This document shows, in pieces, positions 35,733 through 44,021 of a stretch of DNA of 44,021 nucleotides (the first letter of the stretch is position 1; each line of letters begins with the position of its first letter). The DNA comes from Oscillospiraceae bacterium. Lineage in GTDB: Bacteria; Bacillota; Clostridia; Oscillospirales; WRJC01. The DNA lies in NCBI GenBank assembly GCA_009777355.1, contig WRMA01000005.1, forward strand, positions 1 to 44,021, written 5' to 3'. Below the pieces are notes generated by a model. It was not told where the DNA came from and did no database searches. It saw nothing but the letters and a program-made list of their open reading frames with translations. A program made the translations under genes and the position numbers.

Positions 35733-37127
35733 TCAAATTTTTCTGCCTTTAAGCAGCTGGTTTTTTACCCATTCTATCATTGGGTCGCCGCATTTTTTTA
35801 GTTCGTTATATAATTTTATTCTGAGTTCAGAAATTAATCCGGCCTTCGATTCGTCGTATATTATATTATCTAATTCGTGAGGGTCTGCGTTTAAATCGTA
35901 AAATTCGTCAATATCAGATAAATTCCAGACGTATTTATAATTATCGTCTGTTTTTATGCACCGGGAAGAATATAACCCGAACTGCTGGCCGTTATAGCTT
36001 GACACGGCGCAGTCTCTTTTATGATATTCGCCGCCGTTCGTCAAAGCTCCGGCGAGGCTCTCGCCGTGGAAAATCCCCTCGGGCTTATCTATGTTAAGCA
36101 AATCCAGAATTGTCGGGGCGAAATCGAGGCAGTTATGTACGTATCCGTCGAATATCCCGGGTTTGATTATCTCTTTGCAGCTGATTATAAACGGAACATG
36201 CGTTAAATCTTCATACATGACGTAATGCTTGTCGAGCATTTTATGGCTGCCGCATAAATCTCCGTGGTCGCACGTGTAGACTATAATAGTGTTTTCAAGC
36301 TGTCCGGTATCTTCGAGATTTTTTAAAATCCTGCCGATTGCGTCGTCGTACTGGCTTATACAGCCATAATATAACGCGACCGTTCTCGACCATTCTTCCC
36401 ACGTTCTGTCTTCAAGCTCCCAGTTTATGACCTGCTGTCTGTGCATATACGGCTTGTTCTTAAATTCGTCGCCGAAGCTTCCCCATATTTCTATCTCCTC
36501 GGGTTTATACATAGCGTCGAAAGGCGAAGAAGGCCGGCACGGGAGATGAGGCTCCGAAAAATCTATATTTATAAACCAGGGTTTATTTTGTTTTGCGAAA
36601 TTATTTATTATTTTATTTGCTTTTTTGGCTAAAATATGCGTATGCGAATCTTCGAGGGGGATTGGCGACGGGTCGCCGAAATATCCGTTTTCATATATAA
36701 TATCCGGGTATTTTTTATTTATCGCGGCGTTTATCTCGCCGTCTCCCAAATAAATATCAAAGCCGAACTTATCAGGCGCAAGAGACGCCGAAACGTTCCA
36801 TTTTCCGCAGAACGCCGTGTTATACCCGTTTTGTTTTAAGTGACGGGGATAAGCGTAATCTTCAGTTGAAAGTTCGCGGACCAGATGGGTGATGTGAAAA
36901 TTCCAGAGAGCTCCGAAGACCTCGGGGCGTCTGCCGGTTATGAGCGACTGCCTCGCGGGGGCGCACACGGGAATCGGCGTATAGGCGTTTTTGAACCATA
37001 CGCCGTTCTTCGCGATTCTGTCGATATTAGGGGTTTTCACGGGGCGTATCCCCGCAAAGCCTATGCAGTCGTATCTTTGCTGGTCGCACATTATAAAAAG
37101 CAGATTCTTGTCGTTTTGATTATTCAT
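35733..37127 (-). CDS. Type I sulfatase (formylglycine-dependent)
   Basis: A 464-residue sulfatase of the alkaline-phosphatase superfamily. The sulfatase signature PVCAPARQSLITGRRP contains C55-x-P-x-R, the cysteine converted to formylglycine. N-terminal LLFIMCDQQRYD supplies metal-ligand aspartates, and VYTCDHGDLCGSH is the C-terminal metal/activity motif. No signal peptide is seen, so it is probably cytoplasmic and acts on imported sulfated sugars such as glycosaminoglycan or mucin units. A maturase (anSME) is not in the window. No strong ribosome site is seen before the ATG. Confidence 0.92.
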   Translation of the reverse strand: MNNQNDKNLLFIMCDQQRYDCIGFAGIRPVKTPNIDRIAKNGVWFKNAYTPIPVCAPARQSLITGRRPEVFGALWNFHITHLVRELSTEDYAYPRHLKQNGYNTAFCGKWNVSASLAPDKFGFDIYLGDGEINAAINKKYPDIIYENGYFGDPSPIPLEDSHTHILAKKANKIINNFAKQNKPWFINIDFSEPHLPCRPSSPFDAMYKPEEIEIWGSFGDEFKNKPYMHRQQVINWELEDRTWEEWSRTVALYYGCISQYDDAIGRILKNLEDTGQLENTIIVYTCDHGDLCGSHKMLDKHYVMYEDLTHVPFIISCKEIIKPGIFDGYVHNCLDFAPTILDLLNIDKPEGIFHGESLAGALTNGGEYHKRDCAVSSYNGQQFGLYSSRCIKTDDNYKYVWNLSDIDEFYDLNADPHELDNIIYDESKAGLISELRIKLYNELKKCGDPMIEWVKNQLLKGRKI

Positions 37128-37168
37128 GATATTTTAATATTTTTGTTTATTAAATTAAAAATTGTGTG

Positions 37169-37198
37169 TGTAGGGCGCGGCATCTTGACGCGCCCTAC
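37169..37198. repeat. Short TGTAGGGCGCG hairpin repeat
   Basis: TGTAGGGCGCG and CGCGCCCTACA form a perfect 11-bp stem with an 8-nt loop, between the sulfatase and the Gly/Tyr-rich gene. Confidence 0.6.
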
Positions 37199-37203
37199 AA
37201 TTT

Positions 37204-37620
37204 TTATACGACGCTTACCGCGCCGTAAGCGTATAGTTTTTCTTTGACGTATTCGTAATTGTCGTCCGCGACGTCGGCTTCGAGAGCCGAACGTCCGCCA
37301 AGGCTCGAACGGCTTGAATACGGGAAAGCGCGGGCGTGTCTGTCGGTAACGCCGTAAACTCCGTAAAGTCCGGGAGTCCAGTTCGAAATCATTCCGAAAC
37401 CTCCCAGACCGAAATATCCCATCTCCGGAAATCCCGCGAAATCACCGCCGCGGAGATATCCGTAATCCATATAGCCGTCGTAGCCGTCGCCGTAATCTCC
37501 CGCCGTTCCCTGCGTTATCTTTATATTTGAGCAGTATTTATTTATTTCGTCCATTGCCGAATTAGCTTCTTTTTCGGTCAGAAATTCGCTTCTTATTTTT
37601 TTCAATTTTTTCAACTCCAT
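37204..37620 (-). CDS. Gly/Tyr-rich protein with ferredoxin-like halves
   Basis: A 138-residue protein. The first 36 residues (IRSEFLTEKEANSAMDEINKYCSNI) and last 35 (SALEADVADDNYEYVKEKLYAYGAVSVV) look like the two halves of a small alpha/beta stress-protein-like domain such as YflT. They are separated by a Gly-, Tyr- and Asp-rich stretch (DYGDGYDGYMDYGYLRGG…GYFGLGGFGM). No SD precedes the ATG at 37620; GGAG inside the first codons instead fits a TTG start at codon 6 (37605). Function unknown. Confidence 0.6.
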   Translation of the reverse strand: MELKKLKKIRSEFLTEKEANSAMDEINKYCSNIKITQGTAGDYGDGYDGYMDYGYLRGGDFAGFPEMGYFGLGGFGMISNWTPGLYGVYGVTDRHARAFPYSSRSSLGGRSALEADVADDNYEYVKEKLYAYGAVSVV

Positions 37621-37740
37621 TTTTTTATTTTTATTTTCAAAATCTTAATTATATTTATTTTCTGCAGAATACGCGAAAAAAATACTATAAATTTTAAATC
37701 TAAAATTAAAACGGAATTGATTCCGAAATCAAAATATTCA

Positions 37741-37776
37741 AAAAAGGCGGGGACGCTTATAATCGCCGCCCCCGCG
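37741..37776 (-). terminator. Intrinsic terminator after the 37817 lipoprotein gene
   Basis: On the minus strand GCGGGGGCG and CGTCCCCGC form a 9-bp stem with one G-U pair, followed by six T's. Confidence 0.82.
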
Positions 37777-37816
37777 GTTTTTAATTTTTAATTATTATAA
37801 TTAAATTATTTAAGAA

Positions 37817-38692
37817 TCAGTAATCAATTTTGAGCGCCGCTTTCTCGTTATCCGCAGTCGAAGGGAACACATACGCTACTATGCCGCCGATTTCAAATTC
37901 CTGAATCCCGTAGCCCATATAGAAATTGAAACCCATTACTGAAGACTGCGGCTCGTCGTTCACGACCCGTCCGGTGAATATTACTCTTTCCCATTCGTCT
38001 TCGGGAGGGGTTTGCTCTCTTGCGGGCTGCATGTCGCCTTCCGAAGCCCAGTTATCCGTGGGGGATTTTATCGCGAGATAATAAGTCGCGGGGTCGTCTG
38101 CCATATACTGTTCGGATTCCTCCGTTCTTCTGCCCTTTATCCAGAACACGCCCGCGACCAAATCGTCCTCTTCGGTTTCGAGATTACCCTTGAACGACGC
38201 GGAATAGCCGACCGCCCAAAAATCGTCGACGTCTCTCGAGGTAGAGATTTTATACGCGGCCGAGAACGGCACGCCGTCGCCGCTTACGTCGATTTCTTCA
38301 CGTTTCGTGGCGTTCGGCGAGAATCTTCTCATAAGCTCGGCTTCGTCTTCGCCGTTAAAGACCGCGACGCCGCCGGACAGTCCGTACCATTCGAGCTCCT
38401 GATATACCTGTTCCCAGTAGGACAGGCTGGGGTCTACTTCAAACGGTTCCGTCGGGGGTTCTGTAGGAGGAGGTTCGGTCGGGGGAGGCGGAGGAGTCGG
38501 TTCGGGGGTAGGCTCGGGGGTTGGTTCTTCGCCCGCGGACTCGCCGTTATTATTTACGTCGCCGGTTGCCGCGGAGCCGTCGTCGTTGTCCGCGGCTTCG
38601 CCGCACGCCGCGATAAACAGCGGCAGCGCCGCTAAAATGATAATTATAAGCAGCGCGGGCAGTTTAAATTTCAAAGATTTTGCGTTTTTCAT
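37817..38692 (-). CDS. Lipoprotein with Pro/Thr/Glu-rich linker and a jelly-roll-like domain
   Basis: A 291-residue exported lipoprotein. The signal peptide LLIIIILAALPLFIAAC ends in a lipobox near C30, followed by an acidic segment and a PTPEPTPEPTPPPPPTEP linker (residues about 55-85). The remaining 200 residues form a beta-rich domain ending in WERVIFTGRV…YGIQEFEIGGIVAYVF, a pattern typical of CBM4/9-like carbohydrate-binding jelly rolls. AAGGAGA precedes the ATG, a consensus-type promoter lies upstream and a terminator follows, so it is monocistronic. Carbohydrate binding is inferred. Confidence 0.75.
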   Translation of the reverse strand: MKNAKSLKFKLPALLIIIILAALPLFIAACGEAADNDDGSAATGDVNNNGESAGEEPTPEPTPEPTPPPPPTEPPPTEPPTEPFEVDPSLSYWEQVYQELEWYGLSGGVAVFNGEDEAELMRRFSPNATKREEIDVSGDGVPFSAAYKISTSRDVDDFWAVGYSASFKGNLETEEDDLVAGVFWIKGRRTEESEQYMADDPATYYLAIKSPTDNWASEGDMQPAREQTPPEDEWERVIFTGRVVNDEPQSSVMGFNFYMGYGIQEFEIGGIVAYVFPSTADNEKAALKIDY

Positions 38693-38748
38693 TTAAAATA
38701 TCTCCTTCTGTATAATAATTTAAAAATATAAATATAAATTTATATTAG

Positions 38749-38777
38749 ATTCTATCACAAAATTTTTAAATTGTCAA
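38749..38777 (-). promoter_or_regulatory. Predicted sigma-A promoter for the 37817 lipoprotein
   Basis: Minus strand TTGACA, 17 bp, TAGAAT, 57 bp before the ATG. This lies in the 300-bp gap shared with the divergent sigK gene. Confidence 0.7.
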
Positions 38778-38883
38778 ATATTTTTTTGTAAACAATAAAA
38801 AATTATAAAAATCACAAAAATTATTTAAGAAGATAAAGAAATATTTACGGCCGCCGTTTCACGGCAACTATTTTGTTTTTTCT

Positions 38884-38912
38884 GCATATACTATAATTAT
38901 ACGCTATAAAAT
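38884..38912 (+). promoter_or_regulatory. Possible sigma-E-type promoter of sigK
   Basis: GCATATA and TATAAAAT with 14 bp between resemble the -35/-10 of mother-cell sigma-E promoters, 80 bp before the sigK start. Known sigK genes are sigma-E dependent. The match is partial and in AT-rich DNA. Confidence 0.35.
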
Positions 38913-38992
38913 TATAATATGCGGCAGTCGGAAAAAACGTTAAAATATTTAAATTTATAAGCGCATTGCCGAATATAGGGGGAATTTTTTTC

Positions 38993-39196
38993 ATGTTACT
39001 TGAAACGGTCGCCGCGGTAATTATAAACTGCACTTATTTGTTTTTAAAAGTCTCGTCAAACGGGGAGTTTCCCTCGCCGTTGAGTTCGGCGAAAGAGAGG
39101 GAGCATTTTTTAAGATATAAAGACGGCGACATTGAATCAAGAAATATATTGATTGAGCGGAATTTAAGACTTGTCGCGCACATTGTTAAAGCATAG
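38993..39196 (+). CDS. sigK: Pro-sigma-K, 5' fragment interrupted after region 2.1
   Basis: The late mother-cell sporulation sigma factor, present only as its first 66 residues plus one foreign codon. The hydrophobic pro-sequence LLETVAAVIINCTYLFLKVS is followed by the diagnostic FPSPLSSAKEREHFLRYKDGDIESRNILIERNLRLVAHIVK, then a stop. In intact SigK this continues with KKY…EDLISIGTIGL, which is not found in any frame downstream. The ATG is chosen because AGGGGG lies 10 bases before it; the track start (TTG 38966) lies upstream of that site. The remainder should lie beyond the window, past the inserted element. In B. subtilis sigK is likewise split by skin. Confidence 0.88.
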   Translation: MLLETVAAVIINCTYLFLKVSSNGEFPSPLSSAKEREHFLRYKDGDIESRNILIERNLRLVAHIVKA

Positions 39197-39200
39197 TGAT
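39180..39200 (+). other. Probable left attachment junction of the sigK-intervening element
   Basis: SigK homology ends at the AAA codon of HIVK (39188-39190) and is followed by foreign GCATAGTGATT. The exact core of the crossover cannot be read without the other end. Confidence 0.5.
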
Positions 39201-39331
39201 TAAAAAACATAGTTGAAAAATGGCGTAAAACCGCCGTTTTACACGGTTTGTATAGTTTTTTGAGGAATATTAAAACCCTTGTTTAAATAAGTATTTTACT
39301 AAATACTTTTAACTTTATAGGGGGCTAAAAT

Positions 39332-39529
39332 TTGAGCGGAGAAAAAATAATAATATCAGAAGAATTACAAAAAGAGATGTTAGAATTTTTTTTAAAGACT
39401 TCTATTCCGAGAAAGAAAAAACTAAAAGCAGAACAAGAAAAAGCTCGTTTACTGTCTGAAATTGAAAATCAAAATTCAGATAGGAGTGTTGAAAATGGCA
39501 GTAAAAACGGGAATATATGTAAGAGTTAG
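39332..39529 (+). CDS. Small charged protein upstream of the large serine recombinase
   Basis: A 65-residue Lys/Glu-rich, probably helical protein (ISEELQKEMLEFFLKTSIPRKKKLKAEQEKARLLSEIE). The TTG start is supported by AGGGGG eight bases upstream. The last 35 bp overlap the recombinase start, so the two are translationally coupled. Small basic proteins next to large serine recombinases can be recombination directionality factors (SprB of SPbeta is an example), but there is no sequence proof here. Confidence 0.6.
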   Translation: MSGEKIIISEELQKEMLEFFLKTSIPRKKKLKAEQEKARLLSEIENQNSDRSVENGSKNGNICKS

Positions 39530-40976
39530 TACAGAGGAACAAGCCCAAGAGGGATATTCAATAAGAGGGCAGACAGAAAAATTAAAATCGTATTCGCTAC
39601 TCAAAGACTGGATAATTCACGGCATTTACTCTGATGAGGGTATTTCTGGTAAAAATATTGTAGAGCGACCTGCAATCAACAGATTAATTCAAGATATTAA
39701 ATCAGGTAAAGTAAATAATGTTCTTGTTTTCAAAGTTGACAGATTAACAAGAAGTACAAAAAATTTAATTGAACTTGTTGAATTGTTTGATAAATATAAC
39801 TGTACTTTTAATTCTCTTACAGAAAGCATAGACACAGAAACACCGTCAGGACGTATGTTTTTAAAGATTATCGGCATATTCGCAGAGTTTGAACGTGAGA
39901 ATTTAGTCAGCAGATTAAAATTAGGGTTTGAGAGAAAAGCTAAAGAGGGTTACAGTTTAGCGAGTTTCGGGGCAAGTTTCGGCTATGATTTAAAAAAAGG
40001 TGAAAAGATACAGACTATAAATCAATCAGAGGCAAAAATCGTCAGAGAAATTTTCGATTTATATGTAAATCAAAATATATCAATGACAAAAATAACGGAG
40101 ATGTTAAATAACAGAAAAATAAAGCCGAAAAGAAAGGGTGAAAAATGGAGCGGAACTTCTGTAAGAAATATTTTACTAAATCCAAATTATATTGGTAAAA
40201 TTCGTTACTCAACACAGGATAAAGACCGTTATTTTGAAACAGACGGACATCATGAGCCTATTATTGAAAATAAAGTTTTTGAGTTGGCGCAGGAAAAGCT
40301 GATTAAAAATAATGCAAGATACAATAAGAAAGCTCCTGACGAAAATAATTATTTCTGCGGATTTCTATATTGTGAAAAGTGCGGAAGTACATACACGACA
40401 CATCATAGCTCGCAGATTTTAAAAAACGGCGAAAAAAAAGAATATACTTCGTATAAATGTAACGGGATAAAATATAAAGACTGCGTAACGCCTCAAATAA
40501 TCAGGGAAAAAATGAATTTTTTATTTGAAGATTATATTAAAAACACAAATATAAATGATTTTGATAATCTTAAATTAAATGCTGATAATAATAATCATGA
40601 TTTATTAAATTATATTGCAGAATGTGAAAATAAACTGAAATCATACGAAAAAAAGAAAAAACGTCTTATGGAACGGTTTATAGCAGAGGAAATAGAATTT
40701 GATAATTATAAACAGTTAATTGAAATGATTGACAGTCAATATGCAGATTTAGAAAATGAATTTATAAAAGTTAAATCTGAAATTAACGCAGAAACAAATC
40801 CTGTTATTTCAAGAGAAGATATAATTTTAAATTTAAAAGAAAACTGGCAGTATTTAGACAGTAAAGAACGAATGATTTTTCTACAGCGGTTTGTTAAAAA
40901 GATTGTGATTAACGGAGAGAAAACAAAAGATAAAAATATATTAAGTATAAAATCAGTTGAATTTAATTCTAAATAA
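39495..40976 (+). CDS. Large serine recombinase, SpoIVCA-like
   Basis: A 493-residue site-specific recombinase. The resolvase catalytic domain begins GIYVRVSTEEQ (nucleophile serine in RVST) and includes FKVDRLTRSTKNLIEL and FAEFERENLVSRL. A recombinase domain follows (SYSLASFGASFGYDL…SGTSVRNILLNPNYIGKI), then a zinc ribbon (FLYCEKCGSTYTTHH) and a coiled coil (YIAECENKLKSYEKKKKRLMERFI). The size matches SpoIVCA, the excisase of B. subtilis skin. ATG 39495 with AGGAGTG six bases before is preferred over the track's TTG at 39462. Its position next to the broken sigK supports a role in excising the element during sporulation. Confidence 0.9.
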   Translation: MAVKTGIYVRVSTEEQAQEGYSIRGQTEKLKSYSLLKDWIIHGIYSDEGISGKNIVERPAINRLIQDIKSGKVNNVLVFKVDRLTRSTKNLIELVELFDKYNCTFNSLTESIDTETPSGRMFLKIIGIFAEFERENLVSRLKLGFERKAKEGYSLASFGASFGYDLKKGEKIQTINQSEAKIVREIFDLYVNQNISMTKITEMLNNRKIKPKRKGEKWSGTSVRNILLNPNYIGKIRYSTQDKDRYFETDGHHEPIIENKVFELAQEKLIKNNARYNKKAPDENNYFCGFLYCEKCGSTYTTHHSSQILKNGEKKEYTSYKCNGIKYKDCVTPQIIREKMNFLFEDYIKNTNINDFDNLKLNADNNNHDLLNYIAECENKLKSYEKKKKRLMERFIAEEIEFDNYKQLIEMIDSQYADLENEFIKVKSEINAETNPVISREDIILNLKENWQYLDSKERMIFLQRFVKKIVINGEKTKDKNILSIKSVEFNSK

Positions 40977-40992
40977 TTATGATTTAAAAAAG

Positions 40993-41031
40993 CAGAGAAA
41001 AGTTAGATAATTTAAACTTTTCTCTGTTTTT
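40993..41031 (+). terminator. Intrinsic terminator after the large serine recombinase
   Basis: CAGAGAAAAGTT and AACTTTTCTCTG form a 12-bp perfect stem with a TTTTT tail, shortly after the recombinase stop. Confidence 0.85.
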
Positions 41032-41045
41032 CAAAAGGAGTTGAG

Positions 41046-41327
41046 ATGATTATAAACACACCAGAAATAACAGATATTGATACAGTAATAAGTATATATT
41101 ACCGTTATCCAGAAATAGGTACAAAACAAATTGAGCAGATTTTCAGTAAACGCTCAAAAGCTACTGTCAGCAGACTTAAAAAATCGGCAAAAAAACAAAT
41201 GGCAGAAGATAATATTTATACTTATGGCATGTATAAAATAAATACAGAATGTGCGTATAAGGTATGGGGTATTGATGTTTTAGATTTAGAAAGGCGAAGA
41301 AATAAATTACAGAAATTAGGGTTATAA
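41046..41327 (+). CDS. Small HTH-like DNA-binding protein of the element
   Basis: A 93-residue protein. YYRYPEIGTKQIEQIFSKRSKATVSRLKKSAK looks like a helix-turn-helix, followed by TYGMYKINTECAYKVWGIDVLDLERRRNKLQKLG. AAGGAG precedes the ATG. It lies just upstream of the tyrosine integrase gene, where element regulators and excisionases are often found. Either role is possible; the family is not recognised. Confidence 0.6.
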   Translation: MIINTPEITDIDTVISIYYRYPEIGTKQIEQIFSKRSKATVSRLKKSAKKQMAEDNIYTYGMYKINTECAYKVWGIDVLDLERRRNKLQKLGL

Positions 41328-41380
41328 AAAAATACAGCAGAGGTCTTGTTTTGAATTAAGTTTATATGATATATTACAAA

Positions 41381-41401
41381 TATATAATTCAAGTGCAAGC
41401 C
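41381..41401 (+). repeat. Left inverted repeat of the integrase module
   Basis: TATATAATTCAAGTGCAAGCC is the inverted counterpart of 42830-42851 (20 of 22 positions). It also forms a local dyad with GGTCTTGTTTTGAATTA at 41342-41358, just before the integrase ribosome site, so it may double as a regulatory site. Confidence 0.6.
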
Positions 41402-41423
41402 TCTATAAAAGGAGGTTTGAAAA

Positions 41424-41915
41424 ATGCCGATATACAGGGCGAAAAATGCCAAAAAAGAGGGCTTGCAAAAATATTATGTGCGTGTAAATTATGTTTCAGA
41501 CAGCGGAGAGTATAAACAAATCACTCGTACAGCTTATGGAATTGATGTTGCAAAAGATTTAGAACGCAGGTTAGAGTATGAAATCAAAGAGCAACAAAAA
41601 ACATCTATACATAAAATGACAGTTCAACAGTTATATGAGGAATATATTTCAGTAAAAAAATATGAGGTCAGAGGAACAACTATCAATAAAACAGAAAAAA
41701 CTTTTAAAAAACATATATTGCCGATTATTAAGAAAATTAAAATTGATAAATTATCTGTTTCAGTATTGCAAGAATGGAAAATATCTATTGAAGAAAAAAA
41801 TTTAGCATTAGCAACAAAGAAAGGTTTATATTCAGAATTAAGGACAATGCTAAATTATGCGGTAAGAATGGACTATATTCCCAAACATAATTTGTCAAAA
41901 GTACGGAAATTTTAA
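41424..41915 (+). CDS. Tyrosine integrase, N-terminal part (frameshifted)
   Basis: Residues 1-163 of a phage/ICE-type tyrosine recombinase. An AP2-like arm-binding domain (YYVRVNYVSDSGEYKQITRTAYG) is followed by the SAM-like core-binding domain (MTVQQLYEEYISVKKYEVRGTTINKTEKTFKKHILP…LYSELRTMLNYAVRMDYIPKHNLSKV). It stops at TAA in AAATTTTAAAG. With one T fewer, the reading would continue without a break into the next ORF (KFKDTMAIKREMKFYTPEEF). AGGAGG precedes the ATG. It is either a broken gene, a sequencing slip or a +1 frameshift. Confidence 0.85.
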   Translation: MPIYRAKNAKKEGLQKYYVRVNYVSDSGEYKQITRTAYGIDVAKDLERRLEYEIKEQQKTSIHKMTVQQLYEEYISVKKYEVRGTTINKTEKTFKKHILPIIKKIKIDKLSVSVLQEWKISIEEKNLALATKKGLYSELRTMLNYAVRMDYIPKHNLSKVRKF

Positions 41916-41922
41916 AGATACT

Positions 41923-42564
41923 ATGGCTATCAAAAGAGAAATGAAATTTTACACACCTGAAGAATTCAGAAAGTACATTGATATTGCGAGAAAAATCGCA
42001 TTAGAAGAACAGGAGAAGAACAAAAATCTCTATGAATGGAATTATTATGTGTTCTTTAATATTGCATTTTACACAGGATTAAGAAAAGGCGAAATACACG
42101 CTTTACGTTGGAGTGATATTGACAATAATTATTTAAGTGTTAAACGCAGTATAACGCAAAAGCTACATAAAACATATATTGAAACTCCACCTAAAAACAG
42201 GTCGTCTATGAGGACAATTCAAATTCCGTTACCGCTTATTAAGATATTAAATGAACATAAAGAAAGGCAGAAATTTTTAGGATATTTGAGCGAAGATAAC
42301 AGGGTTTTAGGTGATGAAAAATGTATAAGAGATGGTGTCATTGACAAAAGAAACAATCTTTATTCTTCATTAGCAGGGGTAAAACGAATACGAATACATG
42401 ATTTCAGACATTCTCACGCTTCATTACTTGCTAATATGGGTATAAACATTCAAGAAGTGGCTCGAAGATTAGGACACGCAAGAGTTGAAATGACATGGAA
42501 TACTTATTCCCATTTATACCCAAGAGAAGAAGAAAAGGCGATTGCAGTATTAAATGCAGTATGA
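41923..42564 (+). CDS. Tyrosine integrase, C-terminal catalytic part (frameshifted)
   Basis: A 213-residue catalytic domain with all expected residues: YTGLRKGEIHALRW (Arg I), HDFRHSHASLLANMG (His-x-x-Arg), GHARVEMTWNTYSHLYPREE (third His and the tyrosine nucleophile). It continues the N-terminal part encoded at 41424-41915 but in a different frame. No ribosome site is visible before the ATG at 41923, which argues that the two ORFs form one protein or one damaged gene rather than two genes. Confidence 0.87.
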   Translation: MAIKREMKFYTPEEFRKYIDIARKIALEEQEKNKNLYEWNYYVFFNIAFYTGLRKGEIHALRWSDIDNNYLSVKRSITQKLHKTYIETPPKNRSSMRTIQIPLPLIKILNEHKERQKFLGYLSEDNRVLGDEKCIRDGVIDKRNNLYSSLAGVKRIRIHDFRHSHASLLANMGINIQEVARRLGHARVEMTWNTYSHLYPREEEKAIAVLNAV

Positions 42565-42571
42565 AAAATCG

Positions 42572-42591
42572 TACACGAATTTTACACGAAT
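42572..42591 (+). repeat. Arm-type direct repeat pair 1
   Basis: TACACGAAT occurs twice with 11 bp from start to start, i.e. one helical turn, starting 8 bp after the integrase stop. The same arrangement recurs at 42788-42807. Confidence 0.75.
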
Positions 42592-42787
42592 AAAGTATAA
42601 TTCACTTAAATATGATTGAAATCTAAAAATGAAATTACAGGCTGAAACGATATAAAACAGGGTAGTTATGAGGATTATTTAAACCAAAATGAAACCGTTT
42701 GAAATGCTAAAAATGATTGGGTAGGAACGACCTAATTTTTTATAAAATCGTTTAAAACAGTATATTACAGAGATTAAAAATCAATCA

Positions 42788-42807
42788 TACACGAATTATA
42801 CACGAAT
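42788..42807 (+). repeat. Arm-type direct repeat pair 2
   Basis: TACACGAAT twice with 11-bp phasing, as at 42572-42591. Together these look like integrase arm-binding sites. The 517-bp gap 42565-43081 holds these, the right inverted repeat and a terminator, and otherwise AT-rich DNA. Confidence 0.75.
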
Positions 42808-42829
42808 AAGAAATTTTAAAATATTAATG

Positions 42830-42851
42830 GGCTTGCATTTTGAATTATATA
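42830..42851 (-). repeat. Right inverted repeat of the integrase module
   Basis: The reverse complement (TATATAATTCAAAATGCAAG then CC) matches 41381-41401. With it, the repeat pair brackets the integrase ORFs and both arm-type repeats. Confidence 0.6.
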
Positions 42852-42872
42852 ATTGAATAGTAAAAAAATATC

Positions 42873-42915
42873 AAGGTCAGTTTTGAAAATAAAATTTCTA
42901 AAACCGACCTTTTTT
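42873..42915 (+). terminator. Intrinsic terminator downstream of the integrase module
   Basis: AAGGTCAGTTTT and AAAACCGACCTT pair over 12 bp with one mismatch, followed by TTTTT. Confidence 0.78.
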
Positions 42916-43057
42916 ATTGCGGAAATTTAAATCCGATAAAATTTTATCTGAAACAAAATATTCCCTCAAAAAGATATAAAAACAGTCAGCCATACAGAAA
43001 ATATGCCGTGTTTTTTATTATGTGGTTATTTCTATAATTTTATTTTAATAGAATTAA

Positions 43058-43709
<652 letters not shown>

Positions 43710-43711
<2 letters not shown>

Positions 43712-43739
43712 CTCCGTAAATGTACACATTTACGGAGTT
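43710..43739 (+). repeat. Candidate recombination site 1 of an invertible segment (also terminator-like)
   Basis: AACTCCGTAAATGT and ACATTTACGGAGTT flank the central AC. Serine recombinase crossover sites have the same design, inverted arms around a 2-bp core. It is followed by GTTTTTA, so it could also end the recombinase transcript. Confidence 0.6.
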
Positions 43740-43753
43740 GTTTTTATAAGAAA

Positions 43754-43782
43754 ATGTTAATTCAAAAAAGTGTTTTTGTCAA
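43754..43782 (-). promoter_or_regulatory. Leftward promoter inside the candidate invertible segment
   Basis: Minus strand TTGACA, 17 bp, TAACAT (-10 matches 4 of 6). In the orientation given it points away from the secreted-protein gene. Inversion between the two sites would move it to about 43823-43851 on the plus strand, some 85 bp before that gene. Confidence 0.45.
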
Positions 43783-43864
43783 CAGTTTTCGCAAAAATTA
43801 ATCGGAATTTAAATATAAATTAACAAAATTTTCTTTTTTAGGCTGTAAACTTAGTTAAAACAGG

Positions 43865-43896
43865 CTATTTCGTAAATGTGTACATTTGCGAAGTAG
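43865..43896 (-). repeat. Candidate recombination site 2 of the invertible segment
   Basis: CTATTTCGTAAATGT and ACATTTGCGAAGTAG flank the central GT. The 17-bp core CGTAAATGTGTACATTT is identical to the reverse complement of site 1, so the two are inverted copies with matching GT/AC cores. It lacks a T tract, so it is not a terminator. Confidence 0.6.
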
Positions 43897-43935
43897 TACA
43901 TTGAAAAATATAAAATTTATAAAAAGAGGTACTTT

Positions 43936-44021
43936 ATGAAACGGAAATTTACAAAGAGATTTATCAGTTTTATTTTGACAGTTGTTATGTTAATGACTTT
44001 AATTCCTTTAGCAAGTACAAC
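43936..44021 (+). CDS. Secreted/surface protein, N-terminal fragment (cut by window end)
   Basis: Only the first 28 residues are in the window: MKRKFTKRFISFILTVVMLM…, a clear Sec signal peptide. AGAGG lies 6 bases before the ATG. Signal peptides of this form head many clostridial surface proteins. There is no convincing forward promoter in the upstream 200 bp in the present orientation. Everything beyond the signal peptide is unknown. Confidence 0.7.
   Translation, partial: MKRKFTKRFISFILTVVMLMTLIPLAST

What the first reader, a model, noticed from the sequence alone, without database searches (positions are those of the whole stretch)
38993..40976. Pro-sigma-K gene split by a skin-like element with its own large serine recombinase
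The ORF 38993-39196 carries the pro-sequence and the diagnostic SigK start through RNLRLVAHIVK, then ends, and no frame downstream continues it. The next main gene is a SpoIVCA-type serine recombinase. In B. subtilis and C. difficile sigK is rebuilt in the mother cell by excision of such an element. Here the break is in region 2.1, which I believe is earlier in the gene than the B. subtilis junction; if so it is an independent insertion at a new site.
Basis: partly seen in the sequence, partly recalled or inferred. Interest (0 to 1): 0.85.

Follow-up and report, generated by a model that had tools for sequence, protein, structure and literature searches.

The report
Sporulation sigma gene split by skin-like element
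A gene needed late in spore formation (sigK) is cut after its first 66 codons by foreign DNA carrying its own recombinase, and relatives of this bacterium show the gene cut at the same codon and rejoinable there, so it is most likely rebuilt by excision during sporulation, as in Bacillus subtilis.

Summary
Window 38993-39190 encodes the first 66 residues of pro-sigma-K, with pro-sequence. It breaks off after HIVK where GC falls from 45% to 29%, next to a large serine recombinase (LSR, 39495-40976). The contig ends at 44021. The assembly (2.0 Mb, 91% complete) holds no sigK 3' half and no second sigK, so excision and the right junction are untested here.

Relatives make the skin reading likely. 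In the same order, nine genomes have sigK cut at the same codon pair (VK|KYY, "site A"). Joining the halves gives full-length sigma-K in all three that I rebuilt, one of them needing a second join. The window fragment is under strong purifying selection (pN 0.07, pS 0.86).

The site is not new: B. cereus bv. anthracis has an excisable island at sigK position 195 (PMC10745906). The window's LSR is unrelated to the site-A LSR clade, so the insertion is independent. A 65-aa ORF overlapping the LSR in the +1 frame resembles Skr, the B. subtilis skin directionality factor.

Beyond the window, sigK in this order is hit at three sites (codons ~66, ~115, ~214), each with its own monophyletic LSR clade. 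Four genomes carry two cuts at once.

The parts
38884..38912 (+). Sigma-E-like promoter of sigK: GCATATA-N14-TATAAAAT
   Evidence: Identical -35/-10 elements and 14-nt spacer in both congeneric genomes upstream of sigK; sigma-E assignment is by consensus only.
38993..39190 (+). 5' part of sigK (pro-sigma-K residues 1-66); the ORF runs to a TAG at 39194-39196
   Evidence: NCBIfam TIGR02846 positions 4-66, E 2e-16; 88% and 85% identical to sigK of two congeners; pN/pS 0.07/0.86.
39186..39191 (.). Junction (putative attL core, TTAAA|G) at site A, codons 66/67
   Evidence: Same position as left junctions in G124, G132 and G138 and other members of the site-A clade; exact core not resolvable without the right end.
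39191..39331 (.). Left arm of the element (putative attP half, contains GTAAAAC-CGCC-GTTTTAC inverted repeat)
   Evidence: Sequence; GC step; weak sigma-E-like GAATATT-N14-AATAAGTA at 39265.
39332..39529 (+). 65-aa ORF, candidate recombination directionality factor, overlapping the LSR start in the +1 frame
   Evidence: A related ORF (ELQ..M.KFFLKTSIPRK) lies before the LSR in all eight LSR relatives examined; parallels B. subtilis Skr (64 aa, overlaps spoIVCA in +1 frame; PMC6957869). phrog_30936, unknown function.
39495..40976 (+). Large serine recombinase/integrase, 493 aa (TTG start at 39462 possible), catalytic Ser12
   Evidence: PF00239, PF07508, PF13408; phrog_95 integrase E 4e-122; PDB hits TP901-1 integrase and SPbeta integrase; tree.
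41046..41327 (+). 93-aa ORF of unknown function, no family match
41424..42564 (+). Tyrosine integrase broken into two ORFs (41424-41915 SAM-like domain, 41923-42564 catalytic domain)
   Evidence: PF14659 and PF00589; frame change between the ORFs.
43082..43711 (+). Small serine resolvase/invertase
   Evidence: PF00239, Mpi-type NF009949; phrog_125.
43936..44021 (+). Start of a gene with a signal-peptide-like N-terminus, cut by the contig end; right end of element and sigK 3' part not in the assembly
   Evidence: window = whole contig C5; sequence.

Best explanation
The window shows the left end of a sigK-intervening (skin-like) element. A mobile element with a large serine integrase inserted between codons 66 and 67 of sigK (HIVK|KYY, sigma region 2.1). 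In growing cells sigK is silent because it is cut. During sporulation the LSR, probably with a small directionality factor encoded by the overlapping 65-aa ORF upstream, recombines attL with attR in the mother cell, excises the element as a circle and rejoins sigK, so that pro-sigma-K is made; the forespore keeps the element. Shown here: the cut gene, its position, the LSR and small ORF beside it, the GC step, purifying selection on the fragment, the conserved promoter, and the same cut with rejoinable halves in relatives. Inferred: the 3' half beyond the contig end, excision, its timing, and the role of the 65-aa ORF.
For: Cut gene, no second sigK. Same codon cut in nine order relatives, each beside an LSR; G124 (54.8-kb element) and G132 (3.26 kb) rejoin at this site to single full-length sigma-K frames, and G138 rejoins here (17.3-kb element) but needs a second join at site C. 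Fragment conserved against G001: 38.5 synonymous versus 11.5 replacement differences in 66 codons; promoter elements identical. LSR with intact catalytic serine and domains. In the relatives examined the small ORF-LSR pair lies near an element end. SpoIVA, sigE and sigF/G-type genes are present, so sporulation genes are retained. An excisable island at the same codon region is published for B. cereus bv. anthracis.
Against: The sigK 3' half and the right junction are absent from the assembly. The LSR's closest kin (45-56% identical) are not beside sigK, so target specificity for sigK rests on this one junction. SpoIIID and YabG were not found in the genus, so control may differ from B. subtilis. 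The broken tyrosine integrase suggests a composite or decaying element.
Confidence: 0.7

Rival explanations
1. A recent integrative element landed in sigK and killed it; the 3' part was lost or will not be rejoined, and the strain cannot complete sporulation through sigma-K.
For: No 3' half in the assembly; element carries a broken tyrosine integrase; LSR kin sit in other genomic sites; SpoIIID and YabG not detected.
Against: The same codon is used by a whole clade of sigK elements whose halves remain joinable where tested; the fragment shows no decay, though a very recent insertion would look the same.
Confidence: 0.2
2. The junction is a mis-assembly of a draft genome: a sigK-bearing contig joined to a mobile-element contig.
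For: 143-contig assembly; contig ends 4.8 kb further on; sharp GC step.
Against: The join falls at a codon where nine other genomes are cut and about 140 bp upstream of the small ORF-LSR pair, where related elements also seem to end.
Confidence: 0.08
3. The element is skin-like, but the recombinase that excises it is a different LSR at the unseen far end; the LSR at 39495 belongs to a nested element. (A variant of the best explanation, not exclusive of it.)
For: In G138 and G213 the site-A LSR abuts the 3' half; the window also has a tyrosine integrase and a resolvase.
Against: No site-A-clade LSR anywhere in the assembly (G000 0 matches); the window LSR and its small ORF are the outermost genes at the junction.
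Confidence: 0.15

Closest known systems
B. cereus biovar anthracis CI island IV (22 kb in sigK at nt 195; PMC10745906)
   Same: Same codon region of sigK (65/66); element with an LSR beside the 5' part; excision shown there.
   Different: Its LSR gene faces the 5' part in the opposite direction, as in G124 and G132 here; the window's LSR reads with sigK. Sequences could not be compared.
B. subtilis skin (SpoIVCA + Skr; PMC6957869)
   Same: sigK cut, LSR just inside the 5' junction, small (64-aa) RDF ORF overlapping the LSR start in the +1 frame.
   Different: Different position in sigK according to the literature (PMC10745906); 48-kb prophage; expression under sigma-E and SpoIIID, the latter not detected in this genus.
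C. difficile skinCd (CD1231 + RDF CD1234; PMC5025042)
   Same: sigK-intervening element with LSR; excision needs an RDF.
   Different: Site differs from that of B. subtilis and orientation is opposite (its codon was not compared with the window); C. [quoted passage not shown]
gin element in B. cereus gerE (PMC5595907)
   Same: Non-prophage intervening element with more than one site-specific recombinase.
   Different: Another target gene.

Membership tests
sigK-intervening (skin) elements | sigK coding sequence interrupted | tested here: met
   Residues 1-66 only, then DNA of other composition with mobile-element genes.
sigK-intervening (skin) elements | sigK 3' part at the other end, restoring the frame when joined | tested here: inconclusive
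   Contig ends inside the element; no 3' part in the 91% complete assembly. Met in relatives at the same site.
sigK-intervening (skin) elements | Element encodes a site-specific recombinase (LSR) | tested here: met
   39495-40976 with all LSR domains.
sigK-intervening (skin) elements | Recombination directionality factor | tested here: inconclusive
   65-aa overlapping ORF conserved with this LSR family; function untested.
sigK-intervening (skin) elements | Excision in the mother cell during sporulation | not testable with these tools
   Needs PCR or sequencing of sporulating cells.
sigK-intervening (skin) elements | No other intact sigK in the genome | tested here: met
   Only sigE (behind spoIIGA) and other sigma factors found.
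Site-A LSR clade (G138/G124/G132 type) | Recombinase belongs to this clade | tested here: not met
   Window LSR groups with L061/L062 (100/99), apart from the nine site-A LSRs (100/99).

The most novel reading that the evidence does not exclude
In this bacterial order sigK is a multi-slot integration gene: three attB sites (codons ~66, ~115, ~214), each served by its own clade of serine recombinase. Two elements can occupy one gene, so two independent excisions are needed to build sigma-K. In the window's species an unrelated recombinase has come to use the first site.
Probability: 0.55. Interest if true: 0.8.

Novelty: new member of a known kind. Interest (0 to 1): 0.58.

Why it matters
It adds a lineage of spore formers in which sigma-K production appears gated by DNA excision, and suggests that two unrelated recombinases use the same codon of sigK. 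The comparative set it led to (three insertion sites, one recombinase clade per site, four doubly cut sigK genes, elements from 3.3 to 103 kb) makes the open question of whether mobile elements regulate sporulation, or merely hide in a gene not needed for growth, testable across many genomes. Two very small elements carry little more than an LSR and an ATPase matching phage-defence candidates, which suggests a benefit other than sigma-K timing. Annotation pipelines and spore-former predictors that require an intact sigK would miss it in such genomes.

Tried and rejected
Looked for the window's sigK 3' half by TIGR02846 profile, by congener protein (residues 67-233) and by a pattern for the last codons (SRIEKxA): none. 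Searched viral contigs and species genomes with the window LSR: only distant hits, none beside sigK. Considered C61 as an intact sigK: rejected, it is sigE behind spoIIGA. Considered a site-A-clade recombinase in the window: rejected by tree. First took the G001/G002 C-terminal change for decay; it proved to be the edge of a second class of insertion. In-frame stops reported in several site-A LSRs lie at their C-terminal ends. Rfam found no RNA in 36000-44021. The exact codon of the B. subtilis and C. difficile insertions could not be checked against sequence here.

Full report
OBSERVATION. The window is the whole contig C5 of a 2.01-Mb, 143-contig, 91%-complete genome. The ORF 38993-39196 encodes MLLETVAAVIINCTYLFLKVSSNGEFPSPLSS...RNLRLVAHIVK followed by one codon and a stop. 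Its best family matches are the SigK models (TIGR02846 and NF004471, positions 4-66 and 6-68), far above SigE. A sigK HMM built here finds only positions 2-67 in the window. GC content is 0.45 to the left and 0.29 to the right of the break.

WHAT FOLLOWS. After 141 bp comes a 65-aa ORF (39332-39529) overlapping, in the +1 frame, a 493-aa large serine recombinase (39495-40976) with Resolvase, Recombinase and zinc-ribbon domains and a catalytic Ser12. Further right are a 93-aa ORF, a tyrosine integrase broken over two ORFs, a small resolvase, and the contig end. A related small ORF (ELQ..M.KFFLKTSIPRK) precedes the recombinase in all eight relatives examined. This arrangement is that of B. subtilis skr-spoIVCA, where the 64-aa Skr overlaps spoIVCA in the +1 frame and is required for excision (PMC6957869); the functional equivalence is inference.

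THE REST OF THE GENOME. No sigK 3' half and no second sigK were found. The strongest hit, C61, lies behind spoIIGA and is sigE. SpoIVA is present; SpoIIID and YabG were not detected in this genome or its two congeners. The 66 codons differ from those of congener G001 at 38.5 synonymous but 11.5 replacement positions (pS 0.86, pN 0.07), and the upstream GCATATA-N14-TATAAAAT (a sigma-E-like promoter) is shared by the three species. So the fragment was under selection for most of the time since these species split; a very recent loss cannot be excluded.

THE SAME SITE IN RELATIVES. In the same order, G132, G124 and G138 have sigK cut at the same codon pair, with the 3' part 3.3, 54.8 and 17.3 kb away. 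Joining across this site in silico gives uninterrupted sigma-K of 234 and 230 residues for G132 and G124; G138 needs a second join at site C and then gives 231 residues, scoring above the NF004471 SigK cut-off though not above that of TIGR02846, which most genomes of this order also miss. A search of 394 genomes of the order with the G138 recombinase gives nine close relatives (54-100% identity, itself included), all nine beside a sigK fragment cut at residues 66-73; weaker matches that were looked at are not. In the literature, B. cereus bv. anthracis CI and two further strains carry an element at sigK nt 195, i.e. codon 65/66, and its excision during sporulation was shown for the former (PMC10745906). 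The window's site is therefore not new.

AN INDEPENDENT INSERTION. In a maximum-likelihood tree of 52 recombinases the site-A, site-B and site-C recombinases each form one group (support 100/99, 100/100, 100/99), and the window's recombinase falls elsewhere, with G001:C4 and G003:C1 enzymes (100/99) that do not sit in sigK. Either a second recombinase lineage converged on this codon, or the responsible enzyme lies at the unseen end; I favour the first, because the small ORF-LSR pair is outermost and no site-A-clade enzyme exists in the assembly.

SITES B AND C. The two congeners G001 and G002 have sigK intact through region 2.1 but cut in region 4.2 after ISRSYV (codon ~214), where other relatives read SRIEKKAL or similar. 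In G001 the missing tail SRIEKQALSKIQSYLKSKTLM lies 4.0 kb away, directly behind another serine recombinase; joining restores a 232-residue sigma-K above the NF004471 cut-off. In G002 the two parts lie on different contigs. A search of the order with the G001 recombinase gives 21 close loci in 21 genomes, 20 of them beside sigK sequence cut at about residues 207-214 (the exception is at a contig edge), and none of nine weaker matches looked at. A third site, codon ~115 (RCIEN|EI), is cut in several genomes. Four genomes have two cuts: G138 (A and C; the three pieces at 242, 260 and 363.5 kb of one contig, elements 17.3 and 103.4 kb), G231 (A and C), G077 and G055 (B and C). In G231, G077 and G055 the pieces lie partly on different contigs. 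I found no report of site C or of doubly cut sigK in the held library, which lacks most subscription papers.

SMALL ELEMENTS. The G132 (3.26 kb) and G001 (3.97 kb) elements contain essentially an LSR and one ATPase (AAA_14/DUF4143 and ATPase_2/DUF234), and both ATPases match phage-defence candidate models of PADLOC (PDC-S01, PDC-S27).

CONCLUSION. The window most likely shows the left end of a skin-like element (0.7), a new and independently acquired member of a known kind at a known site. The surprising part lies in the comparative picture: one gene, three target sites, one recombinase clade per site, and genes carrying two elements at once.

Noticed in passing
L045:3302-7294 (G001:C8, same genus): 4.0-kb skin-like element at sigK codon 214 (region 4.2) made of an ATPase_2/DUF234 gene, small ORFs and an LSR; joining the flanks restores sigma-K.
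   Followed up: yes
L091, L130 (G138:C1:242215-363560): sigK in three pieces on one contig: a 17.3-kb element at codon 66 and a 103.4-kb element at codon 214.
   Followed up: yes
L090, L105, L146 (G077); L086, L141 (G055); L144, L166 (G231): Three more genomes with sigK cut at two sites (B and C, B and C, A and C), pieces partly on different contigs.
   Followed up: partly
L095:15678-18768 (G132:C11): 3.26-kb sigK element holding only an LSR and an AAA_14/DUF4143 ATPase that matches PADLOC candidate PDC-S01 (616 bits).
   Followed up: partly
G000, G001, G002 genomes: SpoIIID and YabG profiles find nothing in the genus although SpoIVA, sigE and sigK are present; the control of sigK excision may differ from B. 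subtilis.
   Followed up: partly
window 41424-42564: Tyrosine integrase split by a frame change between 41915 and 41923; decayed gene or sequencing error.
   Followed up: no
window 42569-42590 and 42792-42813: Near-identical direct repeats TACACGAATT(T/A)TACACGAATAA behind the tyrosine integrase, about 220 bp apart; possible attachment or iteron-like repeats.
   Followed up: no
G000:C9:35322-36794: A second LSR of the same family (45% identical) with its own small upstream ORF near a contig end in the window's genome.
   Followed up: partly
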